Below are positions 2,713 to 41,071 of a stretch of DNA of 50,350 nt, piece by piece. The first letter of the stretch is position 1; the number at the start of each line of letters is the position of its first letter. A program made the position numbers and the translations under genes. The notes below the pieces were generated by a model. The model was not told the DNA's origin and did no database searches. It worked only from the letters and a program-made list of their open reading frames with translations. Origin of the DNA: Clavibacter sepedonicus (GTDB lineage Bacteria; Actinomycetota; Actinomycetes; Actinomycetales; Microbacteriaceae); the NCBI RefSeq assembly GCF_000069225.1, contig NC_010399.1, positions 1 through 50,350 of the forward strand. The letters are read 5' to 3'.

Positions 2713-2780
2713 TCTCGTCTCGCTCCCCCGTCGACGGGTGCCTCGCTCCGCGTGAGGCATCCGTCCTCGGGAGCTCGGGG

Positions 2781-2927
2781 AGCCGCTTCGCGGCGGGCAG
2801 CGACGATGTGGTGAGAGGTGCGCAGCCAGCACACGGGATCGGCCGGCCGTCTCCGAGAGCACCGGTCCAGAGCGCCGATGGATCTCCAGCCCTTCCGCCG
2901 TCGTTCACCCCCCAATGTCACCGCCCA
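2781..2927. repeat. Dispersed noncoding repeat, copy 1
   Basis: Segments 2781-2827, about 2870-2900 and 2904-2927 align in order with 39243-39390. The last 24 bases (starting TTCACCCCCCAATGTCACCG) are identical. The block begins with GCCGCTTCGCGG at 2782. No convincing gene occupies 2713-3138. Confidence 0.75.
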
Positions 2928-3138
2928 CAATCCAAGCTGTGGGACCAAACCACCGAGCCGGCCACCTCGGCAACAGTCCCCTGTCCCGCAGACGCACACC
3001 TCCAGACCCCGTGATCGACGTGCCCCGCTCCCCCATCAGGGCAAGGCGCAGTGCAGCGCAGCGGAACGGAGCCGCGGCAGCCCGACACCCGAGCCGGGCC
3101 CCCTCGATCCCGCCGACGATCTACAGAAAGTCGCTAAA

Positions 3139-17672: not shown

Positions 17673-18236
17673 GTGATGAACGTCGCCAGTGAGAGGGACC
17701 CGCAGAAGCTCCGCCAGTACCTCCGCGACCCGCACGAGAACGTGCGCGCCGCCGCCATCCTCAACCCCCGGACGCCGCACGACGCTGTGCGCGCGCTGCT
17801 GTCGCGCAAGCCTGGCCGGGCGGTGCGAGCGGCACTCGTCCTGCACCCGGTGCTGACCGACGCCGAGCGTGCCTCGCTGCTCCGCAGCGAGGACAGCGAG
17901 ACGCGCAGCGTGCGGATCGCGATTCTCGCCGCGATGGCCCGGTTCTCTCAGTCGCCCGCCGAGCTCGCGGAGCTCGCCAAGCACCCCGCCACACCCGTCC
18001 TCCTCCGCGTGGCGTCGAACCGCCACACCAGCCGCGAAACCCGCGCCGACCTCCGCCACTGGTCCTCTCCTGCTCGTATCCGCGCGTCCCTGCCGAGGCT
18101 GTCCCCATCGACGGCACGCCACGCGGATCCCGACCGCCTAGGGATCCTCAGGCAGGTCGTCGAGTACGACCGGGCCGAGAACCGCGCCCGTGCTCATCCT
18201 GCACGGCTGGTCGCTCACCTAGACCGCGCGCTCTAG
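17673..18236 (+). CDS. HEAT-like repeat protein
   Basis: A 187-residue protein of repeated short helical pairs of the form LLRDPHENVRAAAILNP, typical of HEAT/ARM-like or variant Leu-rich repeats. GTG 17673 has GGAAGGA 8 bases upstream; ATG 17676 is an alternative. Its TAG stop lies inside the CTAG target of the adjacent IS; removing the IS and one target copy leaves the same stop, so the IS did not truncate it. Function unknown; repeat folds of this type mediate protein contacts. Confidence 0.7.
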   Translation: MMNVASERDPQKLRQYLRDPHENVRAAAILNPRTPHDAVRALLSRKPGRAVRAALVLHPVLTDAERASLLRSEDSETRSVRIAILAAMARFSQSPAELAELAKHPATPVLLRVASNRHTSRETRADLRHWSSPARIRASLPRLSPSTARHADPDRLGILRQVVEYDRAENRARAHPARLVAHLDRAL

Positions 18237-18237
18237 C

Positions 18238-19305
18238 TGTACTGGGTCATGACGTTGGTGACACTCGGGCCGCGGGCGTGAGCCCGTGGCTTGAGTGGAT
18301 TCGTTCAGTGTTGTAGTGCTCGATGAAGGGGTCAAGCGCGTCGGCCCGGTGTTGGTTGCTGGTGAAGGGTTGCCGGTAGGCCCACTCGGTCGCGAGGGTC
18401 CGGTTGAAGCGCTCGACCTTGCCGTTCTGCCAGGGGCAGTGCGGGCGGATGAACTTCTGCCGCGCGCCCAGGTCCTGGACGGCGTTCTTGAACGCGGTCG
18501 AGTGCCGGTAGGCGAACGCGTTGTCCGTGATGACCCGCTCGATCCGGGTGATCCCATGCCCGGCGAAGTACGCCGCTGCGCGGGTCAGGAACCCGGCCGC
18601 GGTCGCGCCTTTCTCATCGGGATGGATCTCCGCGTAGGCGAGACGGGTGTGGTCATCGACCGCGGCATGGACGTAATCGAACCCGATCCCGCGGCCGCGG
18701 ACCTGCTCGCTGCGCCCGTGGACCCGCCAGCCGCCTCCGTCCGGGATCCTCCCGAGCTTCTTCACGTCCACGTGGATCAGATCACCCGGATGCTCGTGCT
18801 CATACCGGTGCGCCGTTGACCGGGATGCCCGGATCACGGCCCCGGTGACGGGGTCCAACCATGCCAACGGCGGCGCCCCGTGCCGGCGCAGGATGCGGGA
18901 GATCGTGCGGGATGGAACACCTGTCACCGGCGCCAGCCGCGCAGGACCCGCCCGCAACTGGGCCCGCGCTTCCAGCACGGCCCGTTCCCGCTCCGGGCTC
19001 GTTCGCCTCGGTACTGACCGGGGCCGCGATGACCGATCCGTCAGCCCTCGCAGCCCCTCGGCACGGAACCGGTTCACCCATCGATGCGCGCACTGCCGCG
19101 ACACCCCCAGCTCCCGCGCGACGTGCGCGACCGGCCGACGATCCTCCACCACCCGCCGCACGAGGAGAACCCTCCCGTGAACCGTCAGACGAGCATTACC
19201 GTGGGACATCGAGGCCTCCTGGCGATGGTTGAACTGAACAGCTCCATCAAGCCAGGAGGCCTCTTCACACGCCCCGAAGTGTCACCAACGTCATGGCCGA
19301 GTACA
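18238..19305 (-). mobile_element. IS481-family element (IS1121-like), copy 1
   Basis: A 1068-bp element with ends TGTACTGGGTCATGACGTTG and, inverted, TGTACTCGGCCATGACGTTG, followed by shared GTGACACT. The flanks are TCTAGC (18232-18237) and GCTAGC (19306-19311), an NCTAGN-type duplication with one mismatch; IS481 family members are known to prefer CTAG. It differs from copy 2 by very few bases, so spread was recent. IS1121 is named from memory of Clavibacter sepedonicus. Confidence 0.93.
18247..19209 (-). CDS. IS481-family transposase, copy 1
   Basis: A 320-residue DDE transposase. An N-terminal helix-turn-helix (about 25-55, ARELGVSRQCAHRWVNRF) precedes the rve integrase core. The likely catalytic residues are D148 (LIHVDVKK), D229 (ITDNAF) and E266 (GKVERFN), with normal spacing. 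Residue 218 is His here and Arg in the second copy. The frame is intact, so the element is probably active. Confidence 0.95.
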   Translation of the reverse strand: MSHGNARLTVHGRVLLVRRVVEDRRPVAHVARELGVSRQCAHRWVNRFRAEGLRGLTDRSSRPRSVPRRTSPERERAVLEARAQLRAGPARLAPVTGVPSRTISRILRRHGAPPLAWLDPVTGAVIRASRSTAHRYEHEHPGDLIHVDVKKLGRIPDGGGWRVHGRSEQVRGRGIGFDYVHAAVDDHTRLAYAEIHPDEKGATAAGFLTRAAAYFAGHGITRIERVITDNAFAYRHSTAFKNAVQDLGARQKFIRPHCPWQNGKVERFNRTLATEWAYRQPFTSNQHRADALDPFIEHYNTERIHSSHGLTPAARVSPTS

Positions 19306-19522
19306 GCTAGCGCCCTCGCGCAGGCAAAGGGCACCGGCCGCAGCAAGTAGGCCCGCCGCCCCATCGGACGAACGCGACGACGACCCGCCGTATTCTCGCC
19401 CCCTCCCCATATGGGGAGGGGGCGCCGCTGTCTTCCCATCCAGAGATCCACCGGTGATACCGTCTGCGACGTCGGGCTGTCACGAAACGCCCGCTCGGCC
19501 GTCACGGAACAGGGGGTGCGGG

Positions 19523-22260: not shown

Positions 22261-22784
22261 GACGTCAGTTCGTCGTCGATGCGGGGCAGCGTGACCTCGG
22301 TGCTCGTGGTGACCGGATGCCGGTCGAGTGTCCGGTACAGGTGGCCCGACCGATCCCGAAGAGCTCCACGAGCTCGGAGACGGAGGTGTCGCCTACGCGG
22401 TGCAGCGCGATCAGGTGTCGCTCCTGGGCGGGGGAGAGCTTCGGCTGTCGCCCTTTCAGCTTCCCCCTCACCTTCGCATTGGCCGTTCCTTCACGGGTCT
22501 GGGCGCGGATGGGGTCGGACTCGAACTCGGCGAACATGCGCGAGCATGTCGAACAAGAGCAGCCCTGTCGGGTCGGTCGGATCGTGCACGGATCCCCCGA
22601 TGCTCAACGCCACGCCCGCCCTTGGCGGCGAGCTCGTCGGCGATTGTGCGGGCATCGCTGATCGACCGGGTGAGCCGGTCGAGCTTCGTGACCACGAGCG
22701 TGTCGCCGGTCCAGCACGCCTCAAGCGCTTTCCCGAGCGCGGGACCATTCCGGTTCGTGCCGGTGAGGCCGTGATCGAGCTAGA

Positions 22785-23852
22785 TGTACTCGGCCATGAC
22801 GTTGGTGACACTTCGGGGCGTGTGAAGAGGCCTCCTGGCTTGATGGAGCTGTTCAGTTCAACCATCGCCAGGAGGCCTCGATGTCCCACGGTAATGCTCG
22901 TCTGACGGTTCACGGGAGGGTTCTCCTCGTGCGGCGGGTGGTGGAGGATCGTCGGCCGGTCGCGCACGTCGCGCGGGAGCTGGGGGTGTCGCGGCAGTGC
23001 GCGCATCGATGGGTGAACCGGTTCCGTGCCGAGGGGCTGCGAGGGCTGACGGATCGGTCATCGCGGCCCCGGTCAGTACCGAGGCGAACGAGCCCGGAGC
23101 GGGAACGGGCCGTGCTGGAAGCGCGGGCCCAGTTGCGGGCGGGTCCTGCGCGGCTGGCGCCGGTGACAGGTGTTCCATCCCGTACGATCTCCCGCATCCT
23201 GCGCCGGCACGGGGCGCCGCCGTTGGCATGGTTGGACCCCGTCACCGGGGCCGTGATCCGGGCATCCCGGTCAACGGCGCACCGGTATGAGCACGAGCAT
23301 CCGGGTGATCTGATCCACGTGGACGTGAAGAAGCTCGGGAGGATCCCGGACGGAGGCGGCTGGCGGGTCCACGGGCGCAGCGAGCAGGTCCGCGGCCGCG
23401 GGATCGGGTTCGATTACGTCCATGCCGCGGTCGATGACCACACCCGTCTCGCCTACGCGGAGATCCATCCCGATGAGAAAGGCGCGACCGCGGCCGGGTT
23501 CCTGACCCGCGCAGCGGCGTACTTCGCCGGGCGCGGGATCACCCGGATCGAGCGGGTCATCACGGACAACGCGTTCGCCTACCGGCACTCGACCGCGTTC
23601 AAGAACGCCGTCCAGGACCTGGGCGCGCGGCAGAAGTTCATCCGCCCGCACTGCCCCTGGCAGAACGGCAAGGTCGAGCGCTTCAACCGGACCCTCGCGA
23701 CCGAGTGGGCCTACCGGCAACCCTTCACCAGCAACCAACACCGGGCCGACGCGCTTGACCCCTTCATCGAGCACTACAACACTGAACGAATCCACTCAAG
23801 CCACGGGCTCACGCCCGCGGCCCGAGTGTCACCAACGTCATGACCCAGTACA
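22785..23852 (+). mobile_element. IS481-family element (IS1121-like), copy 2
   Basis: A 1068-bp element in opposite orientation to copy 1, with a perfect 6-bp target duplication GCTAGA (22779-22784 and 23853-23858). It splits the resolvase gene at 22257-23961. Because both resolvase halves remain in register on the minus strand, the 3.5-kb segment between the IS copies is not currently inverted. Confidence 0.95.
22881..23843 (+). CDS. IS481-family transposase, copy 2
   Basis: A 320-residue DDE transposase identical to copy 1 except for Arg in place of His at residue 218; one silent change is also visible. Catalytic D148, D229 and E266 are present and the frame is intact. Confidence 0.95.
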   Translation: MSHGNARLTVHGRVLLVRRVVEDRRPVAHVARELGVSRQCAHRWVNRFRAEGLRGLTDRSSRPRSVPRRTSPERERAVLEARAQLRAGPARLAPVTGVPSRTISRILRRHGAPPLAWLDPVTGAVIRASRSTAHRYEHEHPGDLIHVDVKKLGRIPDGGGWRVHGRSEQVRGRGIGFDYVHAAVDDHTRLAYAEIHPDEKGATAAGFLTRAAAYFAGRGITRIERVITDNAFAYRHSTAFKNAVQDLGARQKFIRPHCPWQNGKVERFNRTLATEWAYRQPFTSNQHRADALDPFIEHYNTERIHSSHGLTPAARVSPTS

Positions 23853-24090
23853 GCTAGATCCGATCCGGTGTCAGCCCGAGCGGCGCGAGGGCGTCCCGCT
23901 TCGCGGTGGCGTCCTGCGCGTCGGTCGAGACGCGGGCGTACCCGATGAGCTGTCCTGCCATGCATGCAGCGTCTGAGGTAGCCCCCCCGTCCCCGGATCC
24001 ACCGCCTGACCAGTCAGATGAGACGCGCGATTCCGCGGTCGAGCACGACGTCGTGAGGTGGTCCGGGGAGGGATCCTTTTCCGGACTACA

Positions 24091-31312: not shown

Positions 31313-31530
31313 GCATAAAGAGTACCACAAAAGTAGGGCCACACAGAATGTCGAGTTGTTCTCATCGGGGCTGAGCTGATGGTCGAGGTTGCCGCGGCTT
31401 CGTTCCGCTGCGCTCCACGAACCCGCGCCATCGTCCATGTCTTCCGCGGCCGCCGTCGGTGTTGTCCGAGATGCGCGCGGAGGTAGTGTGCTCTCTTCGG
31501 GCAATGCCGGGAGTCTGGTGAGGGAGAGCG

Positions 31531-33857: not shown

Positions 33858-34067
33858 ATGAGCACCAGGATCACGCAGCGTAGTGCGCAGGACGTCGACG
33901 TCGAGCAGGGCATGGCGCTGGTCGAGAAGGCACAGCAGCTCGCCGGACACTTCCCGAACGCCGAGGCGCTCGGCCGCGCCCGTCGTGTCCTCGAGGGGAC
34001 GATGACCGAGGACGAGGCTCGCGCGGAGGTCGCAGCGAAGTACGGGTTTCCCCTCCGCCAGCGCTGA
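33858..34067 (+). CDS. VbhA-like antitoxin
   Basis: A 69-residue protein with the pattern NAEALGRARRVLEGTMTEDE and a final AAKYGF, the inhibitory helix arrangement of VbhA-type antitoxins that block the Fic active site with a [S/T]xxxE[G/N]-like motif. It is 25 bases upstream of the fic gene, the usual order. It would hold the Fic enzyme inactive. Confidence 0.75.
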   Translation: MSTRITQRSAQDVDVEQGMALVEKAQQLAGHFPNAEALGRARRVLEGTMTEDEARAEVAAKYGFPLRQR

Positions 34068-34092
34068 GCGCCGGCGGCGCCCTGACGACCGC

Positions 34093-34934
34093 ATGAGCGT
34101 CGACGATAAGTACACGTACCCGGGCAGCGGCGGCGTCCTCATCAACGCAGCGGGCATCCGCGACCACGCGCAACTTGACGAGGCGATGAACGACGTCGCG
34201 TCGGTCGTGCTTGCGAAGATCTACACTGAGCCTGCCCCGGAGCGCCTCGACCTCGAGTACCTCCGTGGCATCCACGTGCGCATGTTCGGGGATCTCCTCC
34301 CTGGGATCGCGGGACGGATCCGCGACGTCGACGTGCAGGCGACGGGGACCGGGATCCCGTACTGCAGGCCCGACTTCATCGAGGTCAACCTCGACACGCT
34401 GTTCCGCAAGCTCGAGCGGGAGGACTACCTCACCGGACTCGACCCGGACACGTTCACTGAGCGGCTCGCCGACCGCTGGGGCGAGCTCTCCGCGATCCAT
34501 CCATGGCGCGACGGCAACACCCGCAGCCAGTCCATGTTCGTGGCCGCTCTCGCGCAGCGGGCCGGCCACCCGATCGACTGGGCGAGCGTCGACGTCGACG
34601 AGCTCCGCCACCACCGCCTGCAGGCGGTGGTGGCACCGACCGCCCCCTCGCCGTGTACCTCCGAGCGCACCTGATCGACACCGCGCTGACCAGAGAGCCC
34701 GAGGGTGCGGCGCCGCTCAGCGCGGCGCGCACCGCGGGCCGCGAGCCGGGGCCGTCCCGCGACGACGGCGAGGCGCTAGCGTACAGCCGACGCGAGCTCG
34801 CCGAGCGCGAGATGCTCCGCACGGCGGGGATCGGCCCGGACGAACGCAGTACTCCTCACCGCGGCTCGTCGTCGACGAGCGCGGGATCGCACGAGCCTCA
34901 CCGTGCTCGCGGGGACGACCCCCTCGAGCGATAG
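34093..34934 (+). pseudogene. Fic (AMP-transferase) toxin, frameshifted in the C-terminal part
   Basis: Residues 1-180 are a Fic domain with the motif HPWRDGNTR at about 136-144, which fits HPFx[D/E]GNxR. Fic toxins transfer AMP to targets such as gyrase. The frame stops at 34674. A shift of one base near 34630, in a GGTGGTGG tract, restores TDRPLAVYLRAHLIDTALTR and reads to 34934. The active-site motif is intact, so partial activity is possible; phase variation or sequence error are alternatives. Function may be lost. Confidence 0.75.
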
Positions 34935-35278
34935 CCGTCGCTCAACGACAGCGAGTCCGCACGCCGGCCGCGCGAGCGGGTGCGACCGGACCAACGTGCA
35001 GAAGGGCGACCACATGAAGACCCGCGGCGCGTGACGCCGCGTCGGCCGCGTCAACCGCGGGACGGTGAGCGTCGAGACCGGCTACTCCTGGACCGACACC
35101 ACGCCCTACGCCGAGATCCAGAAGCTCCGCCGGCCCGAGTAGCACCGGCGACCCGGGATCCCCGTCGACGCCGACGAGCATCCCGGGCACCACTCCCCCG
35201 GACGGGCCCTCCGGGACTCTGCCACCCGGCGCCGGACGGCGCCGATGTGCCGGCACGCCGGCGAACGACCTGAGCTGT

Positions 35279-35383
35279 GCCGCTGCGCGGTGCCGTCCAC
35301 CTCAGCGGTGCCGCTGCGCGGAGGTGTTGGCCTGAGCTGTGCCGCTCCGCGGCGCCCTCTGTCTGATCGGAGCCGCTGCGCGG
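35279..35383. repeat. Four GCCGCTNCGCGG boxes at an exact 31-bp period
   Basis: Boxes start at 35279, 35310, 35341 and 35372, always 31 bp apart (about three helical turns). Each is preceded by a CCTGAGCTGT-like segment. The box is a near palindrome (GCCGC and GCGGC arms). Single copies lie at 37973, 2782 and 39244. The 700 bases from 34935 to 35646 hold no other clear gene; a small decayed frame with an in-frame stop may lie at 35014-35142. Confidence 0.8.
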
Positions 35384-35646
35384 CGCTGTCTGGGCCCTGG
35401 CGGGCCCGTCGTTTTGCCGTGAAGCCTTCGGCGGCTCGGTCGCTGCGCTCCCTCGTAGCCACCTGCGGGCTCCGCGCAAGCGGCTCCGCCGCCGGCTCCT
35501 CCGAGATTTTCGGGACGCGGTCGCAAGCTCCCTTATTTCGCCCCGAAATTCTCTCCCCCACCGCCCTTCGGGTTGCACTACGCCCTCCGGTCGCTAAGGC
35601 GTAAAAACGCCTTCACGGCAAAAAACGAGTGGAAGAGAGAACACAC
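35365..35646 (+). promoter_or_regulatory. Shared leader, copy A (before the ParB-like gene)
   Basis: About 280 bases that align with 37965-38231 up to the start codon of both downstream genes. Shared features are the GCCGCTGCGCGG box, CGTGAAGCCTTCGGC, CTTATTTCGCCCCGAAA and a hairpin close to the gene. The hairpin arms (AAGGCGT 35596-35602, ACGCCTT 35607-35613) differ from those of copy B but keep pairing. Likely promoter and 5' leader. Confidence 0.7.
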
Positions 35647-37194
35647 GTGACGATTACCGAGAACACCACCAGCACCAACGGGGTCACCGAGTACCTGGAC
35701 CCGAACACGCTCATCATCGAGGAGAACGTGCGCCCCAGCGCAGACCTCAACCGGGAGTTCGTGCAGAGCATCAAGGCGAACGGCGTCCTGGTGCCCGTCA
35801 TCGCACGCCGCGACTCCGAGGGCCGCGTGCTCGTCCGGGCCGGACAGCGCCGCACCCTCGGCGCGCGTCAGGCGGGCGTGGCCACGATCCCGGTCCACGT
35901 CATCGACGCGGACGAGGCCACCACCGACCGGATCGTGCAGCAGCTCGTGGAGAACGACCAGCGCACCGGGCTCACGGACGTGGACCGCACGGTCGCGTTC
36001 AAGCAGCTGCAGTTCGAGGGCCTCAGCGCCGCCGCGATCTCCAAGCGCACCGGGACCGGACCCCGCGTGGTCAAGAAGACCCTGGCCGTCGCGAACACGC
36101 CCTCCGCGGCCGCGGCGCTCACGGATCACCAGCTCACCTTGGACCAGGCCGCCGCGCTCGTAGAGTTCGACGAGTACCCAGACCTTCAGGCCCGCCTCAT
36201 CGAGACCGCTCGCGCCCACCCGGCGCAGTTCGACCACCAGCTGCGCTACGCACAGCAGGATCTTGCGCGGAAGCACGCCGTCCAGGCAGTGGCCGCCGAC
36301 CACGAGAGCCGCGGCTACGTCATCGTGGATCCCCAGAACCCCGAGCACGCGGACTTCGTGCCCGTGCGGGACCTCGTGACGGTCGAAGGCGGCGACGCGC
36401 TTCTGACCCCGGAGAAGATGGACACGCTCGACGGGCGCGGGGTGCGCGTGGTCGCGTACCTCCGCGAGCCGGAGGCGGTGTACTACCTCCGCGACCCCCA
36501 GGCCGTCGGCTACCGCCGAGACGAGACCACCGGGACGCGCACGAGCCCGGCGACGGGCGCGGGCTCCCAGACCGAGGAGCAGAAGGCCGAACGTCGCCGG
36601 GTCATCGCCAACAACAAGGCGTGGGACGCTGCCGAGAGCGTGCGGCGCGAGTTCGTCGCCGCGCTCGTCACCCGGAGGTCGCTCCCGAAGGACGCCGGAC
36701 AGGTCATCGCAGCCGGGCTCACGACCCACCGTCACGAGGTCGGCCGTGCGGTGCAGGAGGGCAGCCCGCTCGCTCACGAGTTCCTGGGCGTGGAGCGCGA
36801 CTACGGGTACTACGGCGACGGCCTCGGCAAGTACGCCGCGGCCACGCCCACGAAGGCGCAGCACGTCGCCCTCGCCGTCGTCCTCGGCGGCATGGAGGCC
36901 GCGCTGAACCGCGACTCGTGGCGAAGCGTCTCGGCGCCGGCGGCCGCGTACCTCCGCCAGCTCGCCGCGTGGGGGTACACGCTCAGCGAGGTCGAGCAGA
37001 TCGTCCCCGACGCCGACGACTCACGCCGCGCCCAGCGCGACGCCGACGATGCCGACGAGTCCGCCGACGCCGCGGAGGGCACGAGCGAGGCCGGATCGGA
37101 CACGACCGAGCCCGGATCGGACACGACCGAGCCCGAAACGGACACGAACGGCCGCGAATTGGACACGGAGGCCGCCCCGGACCTCGCCGTGTAG
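35647..37194 (+). CDS. Large ParB/Srx-domain protein
   Basis: A 515-residue protein. The ParB/Srx fold spans about 20-110 (LIIEENVRP, then the VRAGQRRTLGARQ motif and VENDQRTGLT). A ParB-like helix-turn-helix follows (about 115-140, LSAAAISKRTGTGPRVVKKT). A long C-terminal part ends in acidic repeats of the type GSDTTEPG. Plasmid ParB-like proteins of this size act early after entry as well as in partition. GTG 35647 is preferred over ATG 35629 because it aligns with the ardC start in the shared leader and has GGAAGAGAGA upstream. Confidence 0.8.
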   Translation: MTITENTTSTNGVTEYLDPNTLIIEENVRPSADLNREFVQSIKANGVLVPVIARRDSEGRVLVRAGQRRTLGARQAGVATIPVHVIDADEATTDRIVQQLVENDQRTGLTDVDRTVAFKQLQFEGLSAAAISKRTGTGPRVVKKTLAVANTPSAAAALTDHQLTLDQAAALVEFDEYPDLQARLIETARAHPAQFDHQLRYAQQDLARKHAVQAVAADHESRGYVIVDPQNPEHADFVPVRDLVTVEGGDALLTPEKMDTLDGRGVRVVAYLREPEAVYYLRDPQAVGYRRDETTGTRTSPATGAGSQTEEQKAERRRVIANNKAWDAAESVRREFVAALVTRRSLPKDAGQVIAAGLTTHRHEVGRAVQEGSPLAHEFLGVERDYGYYGDGLGKYAAATPTKAQHVALAVVLGGMEAALNRDSWRSVSAPAAAYLRQLAAWGYTLSEVEQIVPDADDSRRAQRDADDADESADAAEGTSEAGSDTTEPGSDTTEPETDTNGRELDTEAAPDLAV

Positions 37195-37200
37195 CCGCAG

Positions 37201-37228
37201 CGGGGCGCTCCTGGTCAGGAGCGCCCCG
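37201..37228 (+). terminator. Terminator after the ParB-like gene
   Basis: A perfect 13-bp stem (CGGGGCGCTCCTG and its complement) with a 2-base loop, 6 bases after the stop. No U-tract, as is common in actinobacteria. Confidence 0.75.
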
Positions 37229-37327
37229 CCCCGGCCGGGCACCACGGCCGCCGCGGGCGCCCGGCGAGGGGCGATCCCCTCGCGCTCCCCCGTCGACGGC
37301 GCACCGCGCCTCAGCGGCCGCGGGCGG

Positions 37328-37516
37328 TCACATCGGGATCCGGAGCCCGCCCGCCTCCTGGAGCGCCACGTACGCGGTCGCGAGCGCCCCGACGACGATG
37401 GCGAACAGGAGCAGCAGCACACCGCCGACGATGCCCACCGCCGTCCGCGAGCGGATCCAGTGGATGGCGACCGCCGCGGAGGCGAGCGGTGCGAGCAGCA
37501 CGGCCGCGTAGATCAC
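37328..37516 (-). CDS. Small two-helix membrane protein
   Basis: A 62-residue protein with hydrophobic segments at about 3-18 and 25-48 (VGIVGGVLLLLFAIVVGALA). GTG 37516 overlaps the stop of the upstream minus-strand gene (GTGA), indicating coupling. It lies in the opposite direction between the ParB-like and ardC genes. Function unknown. Confidence 0.6.
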   Translation of the reverse strand: MIYAAVLLAPLASAAVAIHWIRSRTAVGIVGGVLLLLFAIVVGALATAYVALQEAGGLRIPM

Positions 37517-37809
37517 TCGTGCTCCCCCAGGACCGCGGCGATGCCGTCCATGAGCGTGCGCGCCCCGAAGCCGAGCAGGCCGATGTCGAACATGCGGGCC
37601 GTGAAGAACAGCCGTTGCTCCTCGGAGTCCCGCGCGATGTACGCCACGACGTCGCCACCATGCACCACGTCGAGCTCCGCGTGGCGGTCGTACCGCTCGA
37701 ACTGCTCGAGCCGCGACACCTTCGCCGATGCCTGCACCACGAGCGCGAGCCCCCGGTACCCGACGTGCACCGGCTCCTCGCGGATCCGCTGCACCTGCTC
37801 GTCCGTCAT
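37513..37809 (-). CDS. Hypothetical protein coupled to a small membrane protein
   Basis: A 98-residue soluble protein (MTDEQVQRIREEPVHVGYRG), mostly beta-like then helical. An upstream GTG is an alternative start. The frame stays open further upstream but that region is the shared leader of ardC on the other strand. No family recognised. Confidence 0.6.
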   Translation of the reverse strand: MTDEQVQRIREEPVHVGYRGLALVVQASAKVSRLEQFERYDRHAELDVVHGGDVVAYIARDSEEQRLFFTARMFDIGLLGFGARTLMDGIAAVLGEHE

Positions 37810-37964
37810 GACGTAGTCCACGCGGACGACGATACGGCCGCTTGCCCCGCCGACCGCTGCCGCCGTCGGCGCCGGTGCACTCCCCCGTCGACGTCGCGTT
37901 GTGGAGGAGCCCGTGGTGCGCCGCGTGGCGGCGCGCGCGGCCAGGCCGCGCCGGTCGCTTCGCT

Positions 37965-38231
37965 CCATCGGAGCCGCTGCGCGGCACAGCACCGGACCCT
38001 GCGGGCCCGTTCATATGCCGTGAAGCCTTCGGCAGTGTGCGGTCGGCCGGCTTCCGCGCAAGCGGCTGCGCCGCCGGCTCCTCCGAGACTTTCGGGACGC
38101 GGTCGCTTCGCTCCCTTATTTCGCCCCGAAACTCTCTCCCCCACCGCCCTACCGGGTTGCACTCCACCCGACCTCCCTGAAGGCGACAAGCGCCTTCACG
38201 GCAAAAGAACGAGGAGGAGAGGGAGAGAAAT
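37965..38231 (+). promoter_or_regulatory. Shared leader, copy B (before ardC)
   Basis: About 267 bases aligning with 35365-35646. It carries one GCCGCTGCGCGG box at 37973-37984 and the near-gene hairpin GAAGGCG (38179-38185) with CGCCTTC (38191-38197). Pairing is kept while bases differ from copy A. A GAGGAGGAGAGGG ribosome-binding region precedes the ardC start. Confidence 0.7.
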
Positions 38232-39134
38232 ATGACTACCAGCACCGTGTCACGTCTAAAGACCACGGCCCCGCGCAAGAGCGCCGAGGAGCGCAAGGCC
38301 CAGGCTGAGGCGCTCCACGCGAGCATCGCAGATCAGATCGACGCACTACGCGACAGCGACGAGTGGCGGCGCTACCTCGACCGAGTGCGCGATTTCCACC
38401 AGTACAGCATCGGTAATCTGCTGCTCATCATGCAGCAATGCCCCCACGCCCGCGCCGTCGCGGGATTTCGGCAATGGCAGGCCCGCGGCCGCCAAGTGCG
38501 GAAGGGCGAGAAAGCCATCCGCATATTCGGATACAGCCAGAAGAAGATCACTGAGGAGGACGCGCAGGGTGAGGGGACCGAGTGGCGCATTCCTCGGTTC
38601 CCTGTCCTCTCGGTCTTCGACGTGAGCCAGACGGACACCATCGACGGCGTCGAGGACGCCGAGCTGGTGCACGACCTCACCGGGGCCACCGATCACGGCG
38701 TGATCGAGGCCCTCACGGCGTTTCTCGCAGTCGAGGGGTGGACGGTAGCCCGCGAGCACCTGGATGGCGAGAGGAAGGGCTGCGCCCGCCCCAGCGACCG
38801 ATCCGTCGTCGTCGAGTTCGACGTCGCCCCCGAGCAGGCCGCGAAGACCCTGATCCACGAGACGGCCCATGTCGTCCTCGGCCACACCGACAACCTGGCC
38901 GGGTACTGGGAGCACCGGGGGATCCAGGAGACCGAGGCCGAGTCCGTCGCCTACGTCGTCGCCGGAATGCTCGGATTCGACACCAGCGCCTACAGCATCG
39001 GCTACATCGCCGGATGGGCAGACGGCGACGCCGAACTCGTCAAGAGCACCGCCACCCGCGTCCTCGCTGCCGCACACCGCATCGCCGCCGTCCTCGAGCC
39101 GGACGACCCCGACGATGTCCCCGCGGCCGCGTGA
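38232..39134 (+). CDS. ardC: ArdC-like antirestriction protein
   Basis: A 300-residue protein with the two ArdC parts. The N-terminal ssDNA-binding domain (about 20-130) contains FHQYSIGNLLLIMQQ and ARGRQVRKGEKAIRI. The C-terminal zinc metallopeptidase-like domain has HETAH with H209, E210 and H213, followed by a distal acidic ETEAESVAY. ArdC proteins protect incoming single-stranded plasmid DNA from restriction. ATG 38232 follows GAGGAGGAGAGGG. Its shared leader and the neighbouring ssb and parB-like genes suggest an early-entry role. Confidence 0.85.
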   Translation: MTTSTVSRLKTTAPRKSAEERKAQAEALHASIADQIDALRDSDEWRRYLDRVRDFHQYSIGNLLLIMQQCPHARAVAGFRQWQARGRQVRKGEKAIRIFGYSQKKITEEDAQGEGTEWRIPRFPVLSVFDVSQTDTIDGVEDAELVHDLTGATDHGVIEALTAFLAVEGWTVAREHLDGERKGCARPSDRSVVVEFDVAPEQAAKTLIHETAHVVLGHTDNLAGYWEHRGIQETEAESVAYVVAGMLGFDTSAYSIGYIAGWADGDAELVKSTATRVLAAAHRIAAVLEPDDPDDVPAAA

Positions 39135-39140
39135 CCTGGG

Positions 39141-39173
39141 CTCCCGGCCGGACTGACGAGGTCCGGCCGGGAG
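39141..39173 (+). terminator. Terminator after ardC
   Basis: A perfect 13-bp stem (CTCCCGGCCGGAC with GTCCGGCCGGGAG) around a 7-base loop, starting 7 bases after the stop; no U-tract. Confidence 0.75.
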
Positions 39174-39242
39174 GCCCCCGGTGTGGCCACCCCCTACGCA
39201 ACCGGACCCAGAACCCCGACTCGCGCCGTCGAGAGCGCGGGT

Positions 39243-39390
39243 AGCCGCTTCGCGGCAGGCAGCGACGACCTGGTGAGAAGTGCGCAGCCGCCTCCCCGAC
39301 ATCGGGTGTCCGTCGGCAAAAGCACCGGACCAGAGCGCTGATGGATTTCCAGCCCTCCCGCAGTCATTCACCCCCCAATGTCACCGCCCA
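39243..39390. repeat. Dispersed noncoding repeat, copy 2
   Basis: Aligns with 2781-2927, including GCCGCTTCGCGG at 39244-39255 and the identical 24-base end at 39367-39390. It is followed by about 260 bases without a gene before the small peptide. Confidence 0.75.
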
Positions 39391-39573
39391 CAGACCCGCC
39401 TTGGCCCCAGGTTCCCGCATGTGATTCGCTCACAACAGCCCCCTGTACCGCACAGCGCACCATCCAGTGCACTCCGTGAATTACCCCCAGGAGCTCGGTC
39501 ACGAGATGACTACATACCCATTTCGCAACCCTCGTAAATAGGGCAAGTTCCCAAGAAAAAAGGTTCAAAGATA

Positions 39574-39602
39574 TTGCCTAGAGGGCCCCGATGCCGTATT
39601 GT
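39574..39602 (+). promoter_or_regulatory. Promoter of the small peptide/ssb genes
   Basis: TTGCCT (39574-39579) and TATTGT (39597-39602) are 17 bases apart, about 50 bases before the peptide start. Confidence 0.5.
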
Positions 39603-39651
39603 TCTATATATGAAAAGCAACCGCAGCGGCACCGACGAGAACGGAGCTCCG

Positions 39652-39771
39652 ATGAACACCACCAGCGCCACGAACCAGGCCCTTGCACAGGTCGTCGGTA
39701 CTTCGACTGTCGGCGAATACGTCGTTCCGGTCGACCCGATGGACCTCCTCCAGTGCGATAGCTGCCAGTAA
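39652..39771 (+). CDS. 39-residue peptide ending in CxxC
   Basis: The peptide starts MNTTSATNQALAQVVGTS and ends PMDLLQCDSCQ. GGAG lies 6-7 bases upstream of ATG 39652. The length, Cys-x-x-Cys-Gln end and acidic proline region resemble a peptide precursor, but no modifying enzyme is nearby. It is the first gene of an apparent operon with ssb. It could be a zinc or redox peptide, a regulatory leader peptide or a precursor. Confidence 0.55.
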   Translation: MNTTSATNQALAQVVGTSTVGEYVVPVDPMDLLQCDSCQ

Positions 39772-39797
39772 GACTTTCTTCTCTAGGAGACATTGTG

Positions 39798-40547
39798 ATG
39801 GACACGCAGAAGTTGTCATCCGAGCAGGAACTCGCATTCGACCTCGGCCGCGAGATCGGAATCATCGAGGGCCGAGCCGCCATGGAAGACCTCGCCGACC
39901 GGTACTACCGCGCCGCCTACGGAGACGAGCGCCGCCCCCAGAACCGGGCCATCGTCACCCGCGAAGAGCTGGAAGAGCGCCGCCGCGCCGCCTGGGAGGC
40001 TGCGCAGCCCATCACCGTCGACGACGCCCTCCGATCCTGGGGGATCGACCCCGAATCGCGGCACGCGACCCCCAGCGCTCCCGCGCCGACCTCCGCTCCA
40101 CCGACCGCCACGGCGGCCACGCCGTCCACCGCACCGTCCGGCACCACGTACACGAACAGGAGCCGCACCATGAGCCACATCAGCCGAACCGGCAACCTCG
40201 CCGGCACGCCCGTCCTCCGCCAGGGACACAAGGGCCCGTACACCTACGCCGCCGTCATCGTGAACGACCGGTTCCAGGACGACAACGGGGACTGGGTCCA
40301 GGGCCCGCCGGTTCGGTACGAGCTCGCCGTCAACGGTGCCCAGGCTGTCGCCCTCGTCGCGACCGCGGAGGCGTGCGGCAACATCCGCGTCACGTTCAGC
40401 GGGGCCTACACCGTGCGCGAGTTCCACGGAGACAAGGGCACGATCCTGCAGCACAAGGTGTTCGTCGACGAGGTCGGTGCCAGCTTCTTCGGTCAGGACA
40501 TCACCGTCGCGCGCCGCACCTCGTCCACGACCACGGGTGAGGCGTAG
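39798..40547 (+). CDS. ssb: Single-stranded DNA-binding protein with an N-terminal extension
   Basis: A 249-residue protein. Residues 1-124 are an acidic helical domain with a Pro/Thr/Ala linker. Residues from M125 (40170) are an OB-fold SSB: ISRTGNLAGTPVLRQ, YTYAAVIVNDRF, VTFSGAYTVREF. ATG 39798 has AGGAGA 7 bases upstream. The internal ATG at 40170 has its own AGGAG 7 bases upstream, so a short SSB of 125 residues may also be made. Plasmid SSBs protect the transferred strand in the recipient. Confidence 0.8.
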   Translation: MDTQKLSSEQELAFDLGREIGIIEGRAAMEDLADRYYRAAYGDERRPQNRAIVTREELEERRRAAWEAAQPITVDDALRSWGIDPESRHATPSAPAPTSAPPTATAATPSTAPSGTTYTNRSRTMSHISRTGNLAGTPVLRQGHKGPYTYAAVIVNDRFQDDNGDWVQGPPVRYELAVNGAQAVALVATAEACGNIRVTFSGAYTVREFHGDKGTILQHKVFVDEVGASFFGQDITVARRTSSTTTGEA

Positions 40548-40549
40548 CC

Positions 40550-41071
40550 ATGTTCCTCCGACCCGTCAGCGGCCCAGAGCCCAGCGTGCCCGAACTGGAC
40601 GAGGACACCCAGCTCGTCATCGACGTCTACGGCGCGTACGAGACCGCCAGGAGCGCCGCCCGCCACGCCATCGAGCACGGGCAGCCGGCGGATGCCGCCG
40701 CCAGCGAGATGGCACCCGCCAAGGAGTGGGCCGTGATGAACGCGTCCTGGATCGGCCTGTTCCCCGTGCAGGGCGCCCTCTGCGGCGCCGTCGAGACCCT
40801 CCAAGCACGGGGCGTCACGGCAGGCGACGTCGGCCCGGTACCGGACGCACGCGCCGGCGGATGGAATGCCGCCTACGACCACGCCACCGCCGTCCGCTGG
40901 CTCACCGAGGCGCTCGAGCGCAACAGCGACGCCCGCGACATCGACCTCATGGTCGCGGAGACCCTCGAGAGCCCGGGCCTGAACGGCGACCTGCGGATCC
41001 GTGAGCTGGTAGTCGAGATCATGGATGTCGCCACCCGGGTATTCTCAGCAGCGAGGAGCGCAGAAGCATGA
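40550..41071 (+). CDS. Hypothetical protein after ssb
   Basis: A 173-residue soluble, helical, acidic protein (DTQLVIDVYGAYETARSAA) starting 2 bases after the ssb stop and overlapping the next small gene. Co-transcribed with ssb. No family recognised; possibly an accessory protein of early plasmid establishment. Confidence 0.65.
   Translation: MFLRPVSGPEPSVPELDEDTQLVIDVYGAYETARSAARHAIEHGQPADAAASEMAPAKEWAVMNASWIGLFPVQGALCGAVETLQARGVTAGDVGPVPDARAGGWNAAYDHATAVRWLTEALERNSDARDIDLMVAETLESPGLNGDLRIRELVVEIMDVATRVFSAARSAEA

What the first reader, a model, noticed from the sequence alone, without database searches (positions are those of the whole stretch)
35279..39255. A 31-bp-period box array recurs as single copies in three other noncoding blocks
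GCCGCTNCGCGG starts at 35279, 35310, 35341 and 35372, an exact 31-base step (about three helical turns). Single boxes lie at 37973 (before ardC), 39244 (before the peptide/ssb genes) and 2782 (before hicAB). The boxes sit in the same face-of-helix register and in otherwise diverged blocks. This suggests a single DNA-binding protein, perhaps the ParB-like protein itself, or a partition/oriT-type site.
Basis: partly seen in the sequence, partly recalled or inferred. Interest (0 to 1): 0.82.

Follow-up and report, generated by a model that had tools for sequence, protein, structure and literature searches.

The report
Folding leader of plasmid entry genes
The repeated box is the upstream edge of a conserved stretch of plasmid DNA that looks built to fold up when the DNA is single-stranded, and it may be a start switch for genes that help the plasmid settle in a new cell.

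Summary
The boxes are real (11 exact matches against 0.25 expected) but are not the functional unit. The array and the box before ardC are the 5' edge of a noncoding leader of about 250 bp, one copy before a ParB-like gene (35369-35640), one before ardC (37970-38225). The leader matches 71 plasmid records and, above 75 bits, 41 of 398 Microbacteriaceae genomes; a model of it finds 12 genomes in seven related families. Its basal arms, about 160-190 nt apart, remain largely complementary through unrelated sequences. In 76 copies, three-base-loop hairpins carry a GNA loop on the template strand 152 times and on the coding strand 4 times. Genes behind it include ArdC, ParB-like, DUF3846 and glutaredoxin. 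Leader and MobF relaxase share a strand in 14 of 14 pairs counted. Best reading: a single-stranded-DNA promoter, analogous to Frpo but unrelated in sequence, folding on the transferred strand. Promoter activity and transfer direction are inferred. The 31-bp array is a multiplication of the leader's 5' hairpin seen in Clavibacter; two of eight ParB-gene leaders lack it, which counts against a ParB site.

The parts
35279..35390 (+). Array of four 31-bp units, each with a hairpin box GCCGC-NNN-GCGG (35279, 35310, 35341, 35372)
   Evidence: over 22 within-array pairs, mean box identity 0.87, mean spacer identity 0.56
35369..35640 (+). Leader 1 (noncoding, about 270 bp) directly upstream of the ParB-like gene
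35412..35424 (+). Leader 1, 5' arm of basal stem P1 (TTTTGCCGTGAAG)
   Evidence: 13 bp perfect with 35611-35623
35611..35623 (+). Leader 1, 3' arm of basal stem P1 (CTTCACGGCAAAA)
   Evidence: mean pairing probability 0.92 on the template strand, 0.82 on the coding strand
35480..35492 (+). Leader 1, hairpin P3 (GCGGC-TCC-GCCGC; a GGA triloop on the template strand)
35503..35555 (+). Leader 1, imperfect hairpin P4 (GAGA.TTTCGGG...CCCGAAA.TCTC)
35573..35578 (+). Leader 1, conserved TTGCAC, outside the helices of the consensus structure
   Evidence: in 49 of 76 leaders, none of the 49 with TANNNT 14-21 nt downstream
35596..35613 (+). Leader 1, hairpin P6 next to the basal stem
35647..37194 (+). 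ParB-like gene (ParB_N domain), GTG start 18 nt after the modelled leader end
37970..38225 (+). Leader 2 (same family, 78% identical to leader 1) upstream of ardC; its 5' hairpin box at 37973
38016..38025 (+). Leader 2, 5' arm of basal stem P1 (TGCCGTGAAG)
38194..38203 (+). Leader 2, 3' arm of basal stem P1 (CTTCACGGCA)
   Evidence: template-strand pairing probability 0.02 or 0.56 depending on the flank folded
38232..39134 (+). ardC (ArdcN domain, anti-restriction family), ATG 20 nt after the modelled leader end
39224..39420 (+). Block B, copy 1, with box at 39244; between ardC and a small ORF plus the ssb-like gene
2762..2929 (+). Block B, copy 2, with box at 2782; upstream of hicAB

Best explanation
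The boxes at 35279-35390 and 37973 belong to a conserved leader that works on the single-stranded plasmid. When the plasmid enters a recipient as one strand, the template strand of the leader folds: a long basal stem (P1) with arms about 160-190 nt apart encloses smaller hairpins, many with C(GNA)G triloops, which are unusually stable in DNA. The gene's template strand leaves the basal stem as a single strand shortly before the start codon. The most likely function is a single-stranded promoter: host RNA polymerase uses the folded strand to express ArdC, the ParB-like protein and other entry genes before the second strand is made, and the leader is quiet once the DNA is double-stranded. The box array is the 5' hairpin of this leader, multiplied in Clavibacter. 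Shown: conservation, covariation, strand bias of the loops, gene context, shared strand with MobF, no sigma-70-like site. Inferred: that the template strand is the transferred strand, that RNA polymerase acts there, and the timing.
For: Distribution: 71 plasmid records; 74 of 398 Microbacteriaceae genomes at E<=0.001, 41 of them above 75 bits (counted); 14 of 396 genomes of the order, 12 of them in seven other families. Covariation on 45 cores: 96.9% of cells paired against 37-49% with partners slid; 73 cells changed on both sides against 14 in shuffles. Basal stem in 67 of 73 testable copies, 58 of them better than the best of 20 shuffles. Triloop hairpins in 76 copies: template-strand GNA 152, coding-strand GNA 4 (distinct 64 v 4); flanking control 57 v 40; 142 of the 152 closed by C-G. 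Fifteen new elements from other families: template-strand GNA 17 v 0; P1 better than shuffles at p<0.05 in 11 of 14. Downstream genes, 63 scanned: ArdC 17, DUF3846 10, ParB_N 8, glutaredoxin 6. Start codon 15-30 nt after the leader in 55 of 72 (starts were sought within 75 nt). Leader and MobF on the same strand in 14 of 14 pairs. 20 of 21 contigs with two matches above 55 bits have both on one strand. 0 of 49 TTGCAC leaders have a TANNNT at promoter distance. F plasmid parallel: two Frpo, 92% alike, about 5 kb apart, before leading genes, active only in recipients (PMC9849209, passages).
Against: No promoter element could be recognised in the folded form; no transcription data exist. The consensus scan that found no sigma-70-like site expects only 0.2 by chance in this region, so its silence is weak. 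Folding energy favours the template strand in 75 of 76, but shuffles give 4.6 of the 6.1 kcal/mol, and only 6 of 31 representatives exceed the 95th percentile of their own shuffles. The mismatch test leans to the template strand (P1 29 v 3; P2-P5 31 v 17) but is 23 v 13 by parsimony, and part of the P1 bias comes from a fixed A-run. The own genome has no MobF match, so the transfer direction of this plasmid is unknown; oriT was not located in any relative. Six of 73 copies show no basal stem and 9 of 67 stems do not beat their shuffles. Leader 2's stem is weakly predicted with wider flanks.
Confidence: 0.62

Rival explanations
1. The folded leader is a single-strand origin (sso/ssi) at which RNA polymerase or primase lays a primer for second-strand synthesis; the genes downstream are incidental.
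For: Folded structures active only as single strands are typical of sso sites, and F is named among plasmids whose sso is used as a promoter (PMC4595007, passages). The strand evidence fits equally.
Against: Often two or more copies per contig (21 contigs), with a start codon 15-30 nt behind the leader in 55 of 72; an origin needs no gene behind it and no repetition.
Confidence: 0.17
2. A structured 5' leader of the mRNA (riboregulator) acting on the coding strand.
For: It lies directly 5' of the gene; the coding strand also folds as RNA.
Against: Loop bias is for GNA on the other strand (152 v 4); mismatches of the A.C kind (G.T on the template strand) exceed G.T (weak by parsimony); a terminator-like hairpin at 35391-35408 stands just upstream of leader 1, though such sites are near chance in number (3 found, 1.7 expected); no Rfam match in the leaders.
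Confidence: 0.1
3. The 31-bp array is a set of double-stranded operator or parS-like sites for the ParB-like or ribbon-helix-helix protein.
For: Palindromic boxes at 31 bp (2.95 turns), spacing kept in 6 of 6 Clavibacter leaders while spacers differ.
Against: Two of 8 ParB-gene leaders lack the array, and boxes precede unrelated genes; loop and one stem vary with pairing kept; tandem duplication of a unit explains the step.
Confidence: 0.08
4. A structured RNA made from the template strand (antisense RNA) that controls the downstream gene.
For: The template strand folds better also with RNA parameters (73 of 76), though composition was controlled only for DNA parameters.
Against: Does not predict the recurrence before entry-type genes or the shared strand with MobF; the consensus scan shows no promoter on that strand, a weak test.
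Confidence: 0.03

Closest known systems
Frpo / ssi single-stranded promoters of F and ColIb-P9
   Same: Noncoding, folds when single-stranded, two similar copies in one region of F, directly before entry genes such as ssb (PMC9849209 and PMC11541004, passages).
   Different: No match of the leader in 20,395 E. coli records; no recognisable -35/-10 in the fold; GC-rich; small GNA-loop hairpins; hosts of the Actinomycetota.
Single-strand origins (sso) of Gram-positive plasmids and ICEBs1
   Same: Noncoding DNA with several stem-loops, active as a single strand, in part used by RNA polymerase (PMC4595007, passages).
   Different: The leaders recur in front of protein genes at a near-constant distance; sso sequences were not compared here.
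Phage N4 virion RNA polymerase promoters (recalled, no call)
   Same: Small stem with a three-base loop on the template strand of single-stranded DNA.
   Different: N4 uses its own polymerase; no such polymerase was searched for here, and this element is about 250 nt.
Extra-stable d(GNA) mini-hairpins such as GCGAAGC
   Same: Loop and C-G closing pair of most leader triloops read on the template strand (PMC4686876, passages).
   Different: Those are studied as isolated DNA; here they recur inside a natural plasmid element.

Membership tests
Frpo-type single-stranded promoter | Sequence similarity to known Frpo/ssi | tested here: not met
   No match of window 35416-35625 in the E. coli genomes and plasmids at E<=0.01; that these contain Frpo is recalled; the known Frpo sequences were not compared one by one
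Frpo-type single-stranded promoter | Single strand folds into a conserved stem-loop structure | tested here: met
   Covariation and basal stem
Frpo-type single-stranded promoter | Fold reconstitutes -10 and -35 boxes | tested here: not met
   No sigma-70-like pair in 34900-39700 (weak test); no TANNNT after TTGCAC in 49 leaders; elements of other actinobacterial sigma factors not modelled
Frpo-type single-stranded promoter | Upstream of leading-region (entry) genes | tested here: met
   ArdC, ParB_N, glutaredoxin, DUF3846 directly downstream, ssb nearby in several plasmids; the leading region itself was not mapped
Frpo-type single-stranded promoter | Template strand is the transferred strand | tested here: inconclusive
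   Same strand as MobF in 14 of 14 pairs; oriT not located; own genome lacks MobF
Frpo-type single-stranded promoter | Transcription by host RNA polymerase from single-stranded DNA | not testable with these tools
   needs in vitro transcription
ParB centromere (parS-type iterons) | Repeats conserved with the ParB gene | tested here: not met
   Array in 6 of 8 ParB_N leaders, all six Clavibacter; absent in L007 (no box) and L041 (one box)
ParB centromere (parS-type iterons) | Bound by the cognate ParB | not testable with these tools
   needs a binding assay
oriT | Single nic-bearing locus recognised by the relaxase | tested here: not met
   Two leaders in this plasmid and two or more matches above 55 bits on 21 contigs

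The most novel reading that the evidence does not exclude
A previously unnamed class of single-stranded promoters, carried by conjugative elements of Microbacteriaceae and scattered through related families of the order, recognised through C(GNA)G mini-hairpins on the template strand rather than through rebuilt -35/-10 boxes. The box array would act as a row of roadblocks that slows second-strand synthesis and so lengthens the time in which entry genes are expressed.
Probability: 0.3. Interest if true: 0.88.

Novelty: new variant of a known kind. Interest (0 to 1): 0.72.

Why it matters
Early expression from the incoming single strand is shown for the F plasmid (PMC9849209, passages). The two papers on Frpo distribution that I looked into do not name Actinobacteria in their main text (supplements not seen), and three searches pairing ssDNA-promoter or leading-region terms with actinobacterial names gave two papers irrelevant by title and abstract start, or none. 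If the leader works as proposed, it gives a sequence tag for finding entry and anti-defence genes in actinobacterial plasmids, and a GC-rich single-stranded promoter with a different recognition logic to study.

Tried and rejected
Box as a fixed operator: rejected as the main reading because stem and loop vary with pairing kept, and boxes sit in leaders of unrelated genes. Rfam, 35100-39800 only: five matches below the gathering scores, to microRNA, snoRNA and a viral frameshift element, none in the leaders. Folding-energy asymmetry as strand proof: 75 of 76 looked decisive, but shuffles showed that most is base composition, so I do not rely on it. Mismatch asymmetry on the covariation alignment (72 v 7) is biased because the structure was predicted on that strand; without three columns it is 20 v 7. 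On aligned P1 columns, partly out of register, it was 66 v 42, and in P6 8 v 4. Helical phasing between blocks: not meaningful. Left out of the 14 MobF pairs: two MobF matches on the same chromosome as a leader but 0.8 Mb or more away, G126 (same strand) and G319 (opposite strand), and a partial MobF match (78830, + strand) some 7 kb from the minus-strand leader of G285:C3. On G285:C3 each leader was paired with the nearer full MobF gene. Left out of the 21-contig count: matches under 55 bits; two contigs among them (G078, G141) have opposite strands. Nine doubtful reading frames of 72 were left out of the family scan. Block B was folded, but its copies are too alike to judge.
Full report
What was checked. 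The window is a whole 50,350-bp contig of a genome in three contigs. Its first 24 kb and the stretch 34.9-39.7 kb are 99.9-100% identical to plasmid pCSL2 of Clavibacter sepedonicus K496. From its size I take it to be plasmid pCS1 (name and size recalled). The exact pattern occurs 11 times against 0.25 expected, and 20 times against 8.5 with one mismatch. In the own genome as a whole the pattern is not special: 95 matches against 71 for the pattern read backwards.

What it is. The array and the box before ardC are the 5' edges of two copies of one noncoding leader, 78% identical. Leader 1 ends 18 nt before the GTG of a ParB_N gene; leader 2 ends 20 nt before the ATG of ardC. A blastn search found the leader in 71 plasmid records; 59 of the 60 listed matches have no gene annotated under them. 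In 398 Microbacteriaceae genomes it matched in 74 at E<=0.001; the tail is short matches, and 41 genomes, the own one included, exceed 75 bits (my count). A covariance model of 45 cores found it in 14 of 396 genomes of the order: the own genome, one more of the family, and 12 in seven other families.

Structure. A profile search of the loci held gave 90 matches, 78 above 50 and 76 above 75 bits. On the alignment of 45 cores, 96.9% of cells pair, against 37-49% when partners are slid, and 73 cells have changes on both sides against 14 in shuffles. The basal stem P1 joins arms about 160-190 nt apart. It was found in 67 of 73 copies with a usable anchor and beats the best of 20 shuffles in 58; six copies show none. 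Its sequence ranges from TTTTGCCGTGAAG/CTTCACGGCAAAA through GCCTGGAAG/CTTCCAGGC to GATCCCTCCTGATG/CATCAGGAGGGATC, perfect in some copies and with a few mismatches in others. On a tree of 76 copies, 50 changes from one Watson-Crick pair to another on both sides are inferred for helices P2-P5.

Which strand. Perfect hairpins with a three-base loop (stem of 5 or more) number 270 in 26 kb of leaders against 652 in 332 kb of flanking sequence. In leaders the loop is TNC on the coding strand (GNA on the template strand) 152 times and GNA on the coding strand 4 times; distinct hairpins 64 v 4; control 57 v 40, distinct 51 v 40. Of the 152, 142 are closed by C-G. In a first set of 42 leaders the counts were 84 and 1, against shuffle means of 1.7 and 1.3. 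C(GNA)G mini-hairpins are exceptionally stable in DNA (PMC4686876, passages). Other strand tests are weaker. Folding energy favours the template strand in 75 of 76, control 41 of 75, but shuffles of 31 representatives give 4.6 of the 6.1 kcal/mol; 21 of 31 exceed their shuffle mean and 6 of 31 the 95th percentile. Mismatches of the kind that are G.T on the template strand prevail 29 v 3 in P1 and 31 v 17 in P2-P5, but 23 v 13 by parsimony. Mean pairing probability of P1 is 0.875 on the template strand and 0.684 on the coding strand in the 40 copies that carry the two commonest arm sequences.

Out of sample. Fifteen elements from outside the family, not used for the model, were tested. GNA loops: 17 on the template strand, 0 on the coding strand, 11 other loops. 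Basal stems: 11 of 14 at p<0.05 against 200 shuffles. Energy favours the template strand in 15 of 15, with the same caveat about composition. The fifteen are not all independent: three lie on one contig, two on another, and L088 and L091 are near-identical.

Context. Of 63 downstream proteins scanned, 17 are ArdC, 10 DUF3846, 8 ParB_N, 6 glutaredoxin, 4 DUF6782 and 2 DUF3560. These come from 72 reading frames found behind 76 leaders, nine doubtful ones left out. The start codon lies 15-30 nt after the modelled leader end in 55 of the 72. ssb, thermonuclease and ParA genes stand nearby in several plasmids. Twenty of 21 contigs with two matches above 55 bits have both on one strand; the exception, G285:C3, carries two full MobF genes of opposite strand, each with a leader on its strand nearby. 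Of 40 genomes searched, 19 have a MobF match. Counting leader and MobF on one plasmid-sized contig, or within 13 kb on a chromosome-sized one, plus plasmids L005 and L007, the strand is the same in 14 of 14 (13 replicons: G238, G246, G024, G295, G285 twice, G214, G381, G354, G217, G115, G145, L005, L007). In F the transferred strand is the template of leading genes and relaxase alike (recalled), so this geometry puts the leader's template strand on the transferred strand. That step is inference, since oriT was not located.

The box itself. In 31 of 76 leaders a box [GA]CCGC-NNN-GCGG lies within 180 nt upstream, and in all 31 one box starts 41-50 nt before the basal stem. A hairpin of stem 5 or more within 100 nt upstream is present in 72 of 76, against 34 of 76 in one base-shuffled copy of each. 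Only six leaders, all Clavibacter and all before a ParB_N gene, have the 31-bp array, with 2 to 4 copies; three Clavibacter ardC leaders have two boxes at a step of 53. Over 22 within-array pairs boxes are 0.87 identical and spacers 0.56; one stem is compensated and loops differ. Tandem duplication gives the step; retention of spacing without indels suggests some selection, whose reason is open.

How it works. The best reading is a single-stranded promoter like Frpo, which is active on the incoming strand and off once the plasmid is double-stranded (PMC9849209, passages; PMC11541004, passages). No sigma-70-like site was found in 34.9-39.7 kb, though shuffles give only 0.2, and none of 49 leaders with TTGCAC has a TANNNT at the right distance, which suits silence as double strand. 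What would bind RNA polymerase in the fold is unknown. An sso role is the main rival and may coexist.

The other two boxes. The boxes at 39244 and 2782 belong to block B, found in 22 plasmid records, all Clavibacter. It lies before a small ORF and ssb, in part with ardC on the other side, or before hicAB; in one plasmid it lies among other genes. Twelve rows were aligned, two of them the same place (L002, L104), so 11 copies; 10 of 11 have the box, and 11 of 11 fold better on the template strand, but the copies are close relatives and that strand is G-rich, so this says little.

Literature. Frpo distribution papers (PMC11541004, PMC12826799; passages only) do not name Actinobacteria in the main text. 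'Frpo + Actinobacteria' gave two papers, judged irrelevant by title and abstract start; 'ssDNA promoter + Actinomycet' and 'leading region + Micrococcales + plasmid' gave none. Two wider listings (30 papers, 25 shown; 37 papers, 12 shown) were read as listings, and two further papers were opened for passages only. Most subscription papers are not held.

Noticed in passing
1-25000 and 34000-41000: The plasmid looks like a fusion: its first half is about 89-90% identical to Clavibacter plasmids of which some are typed rep_cluster_204/MOBC, while the leader-ardC-ssb part matches MOBF plasmids. Segments at 21.4-22.8 kb and 46.8-48.2 kb are 71-90% alike.
   Followed up: partly
1466-1633: Just after the ORF 1-1440 (rep-type): a perfect hairpin with a 12-bp stem (1466-1492) and two nested perfect inverted repeats (29 bp at 1508/1605, 22 bp at 1541/1572); possibly a replication structure.
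   Followed up: no
18232-19320 and 22770-23858: Two IS1121 (IS481 family) copies in inverted orientation, 99% alike, 3.4 kb apart; each contains one exact box.
   Followed up: no
3051-3082 and 31387-31418: A 32-bp inverted repeat, 91% complementary, 28 kb apart.
   Followed up: no
39224-39420 and 2762-2929: Block B: a noncoding element seen only in Clavibacter, with very conserved inner segments (CCAGAGCGC.GATGGAT, CCCCCAATGTCACC), before ssb-type and hicAB genes; function open.
   Followed up: partly
L074:364-2826: Three weak, short matches to the leader profile (25-32 bits) about 1.1-1.2 kb apart on one contig; L087/L096/L098 (G673:C3) carry three stronger ones within about 4 kb.
   Followed up: no
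L068:509-3806 (G024:C1) and L061:434-1999 (G145:C1): Leaders and a MobF gene within 2-14 kb on chromosome-sized contigs, suggesting integrative conjugative elements.
   Followed up: no
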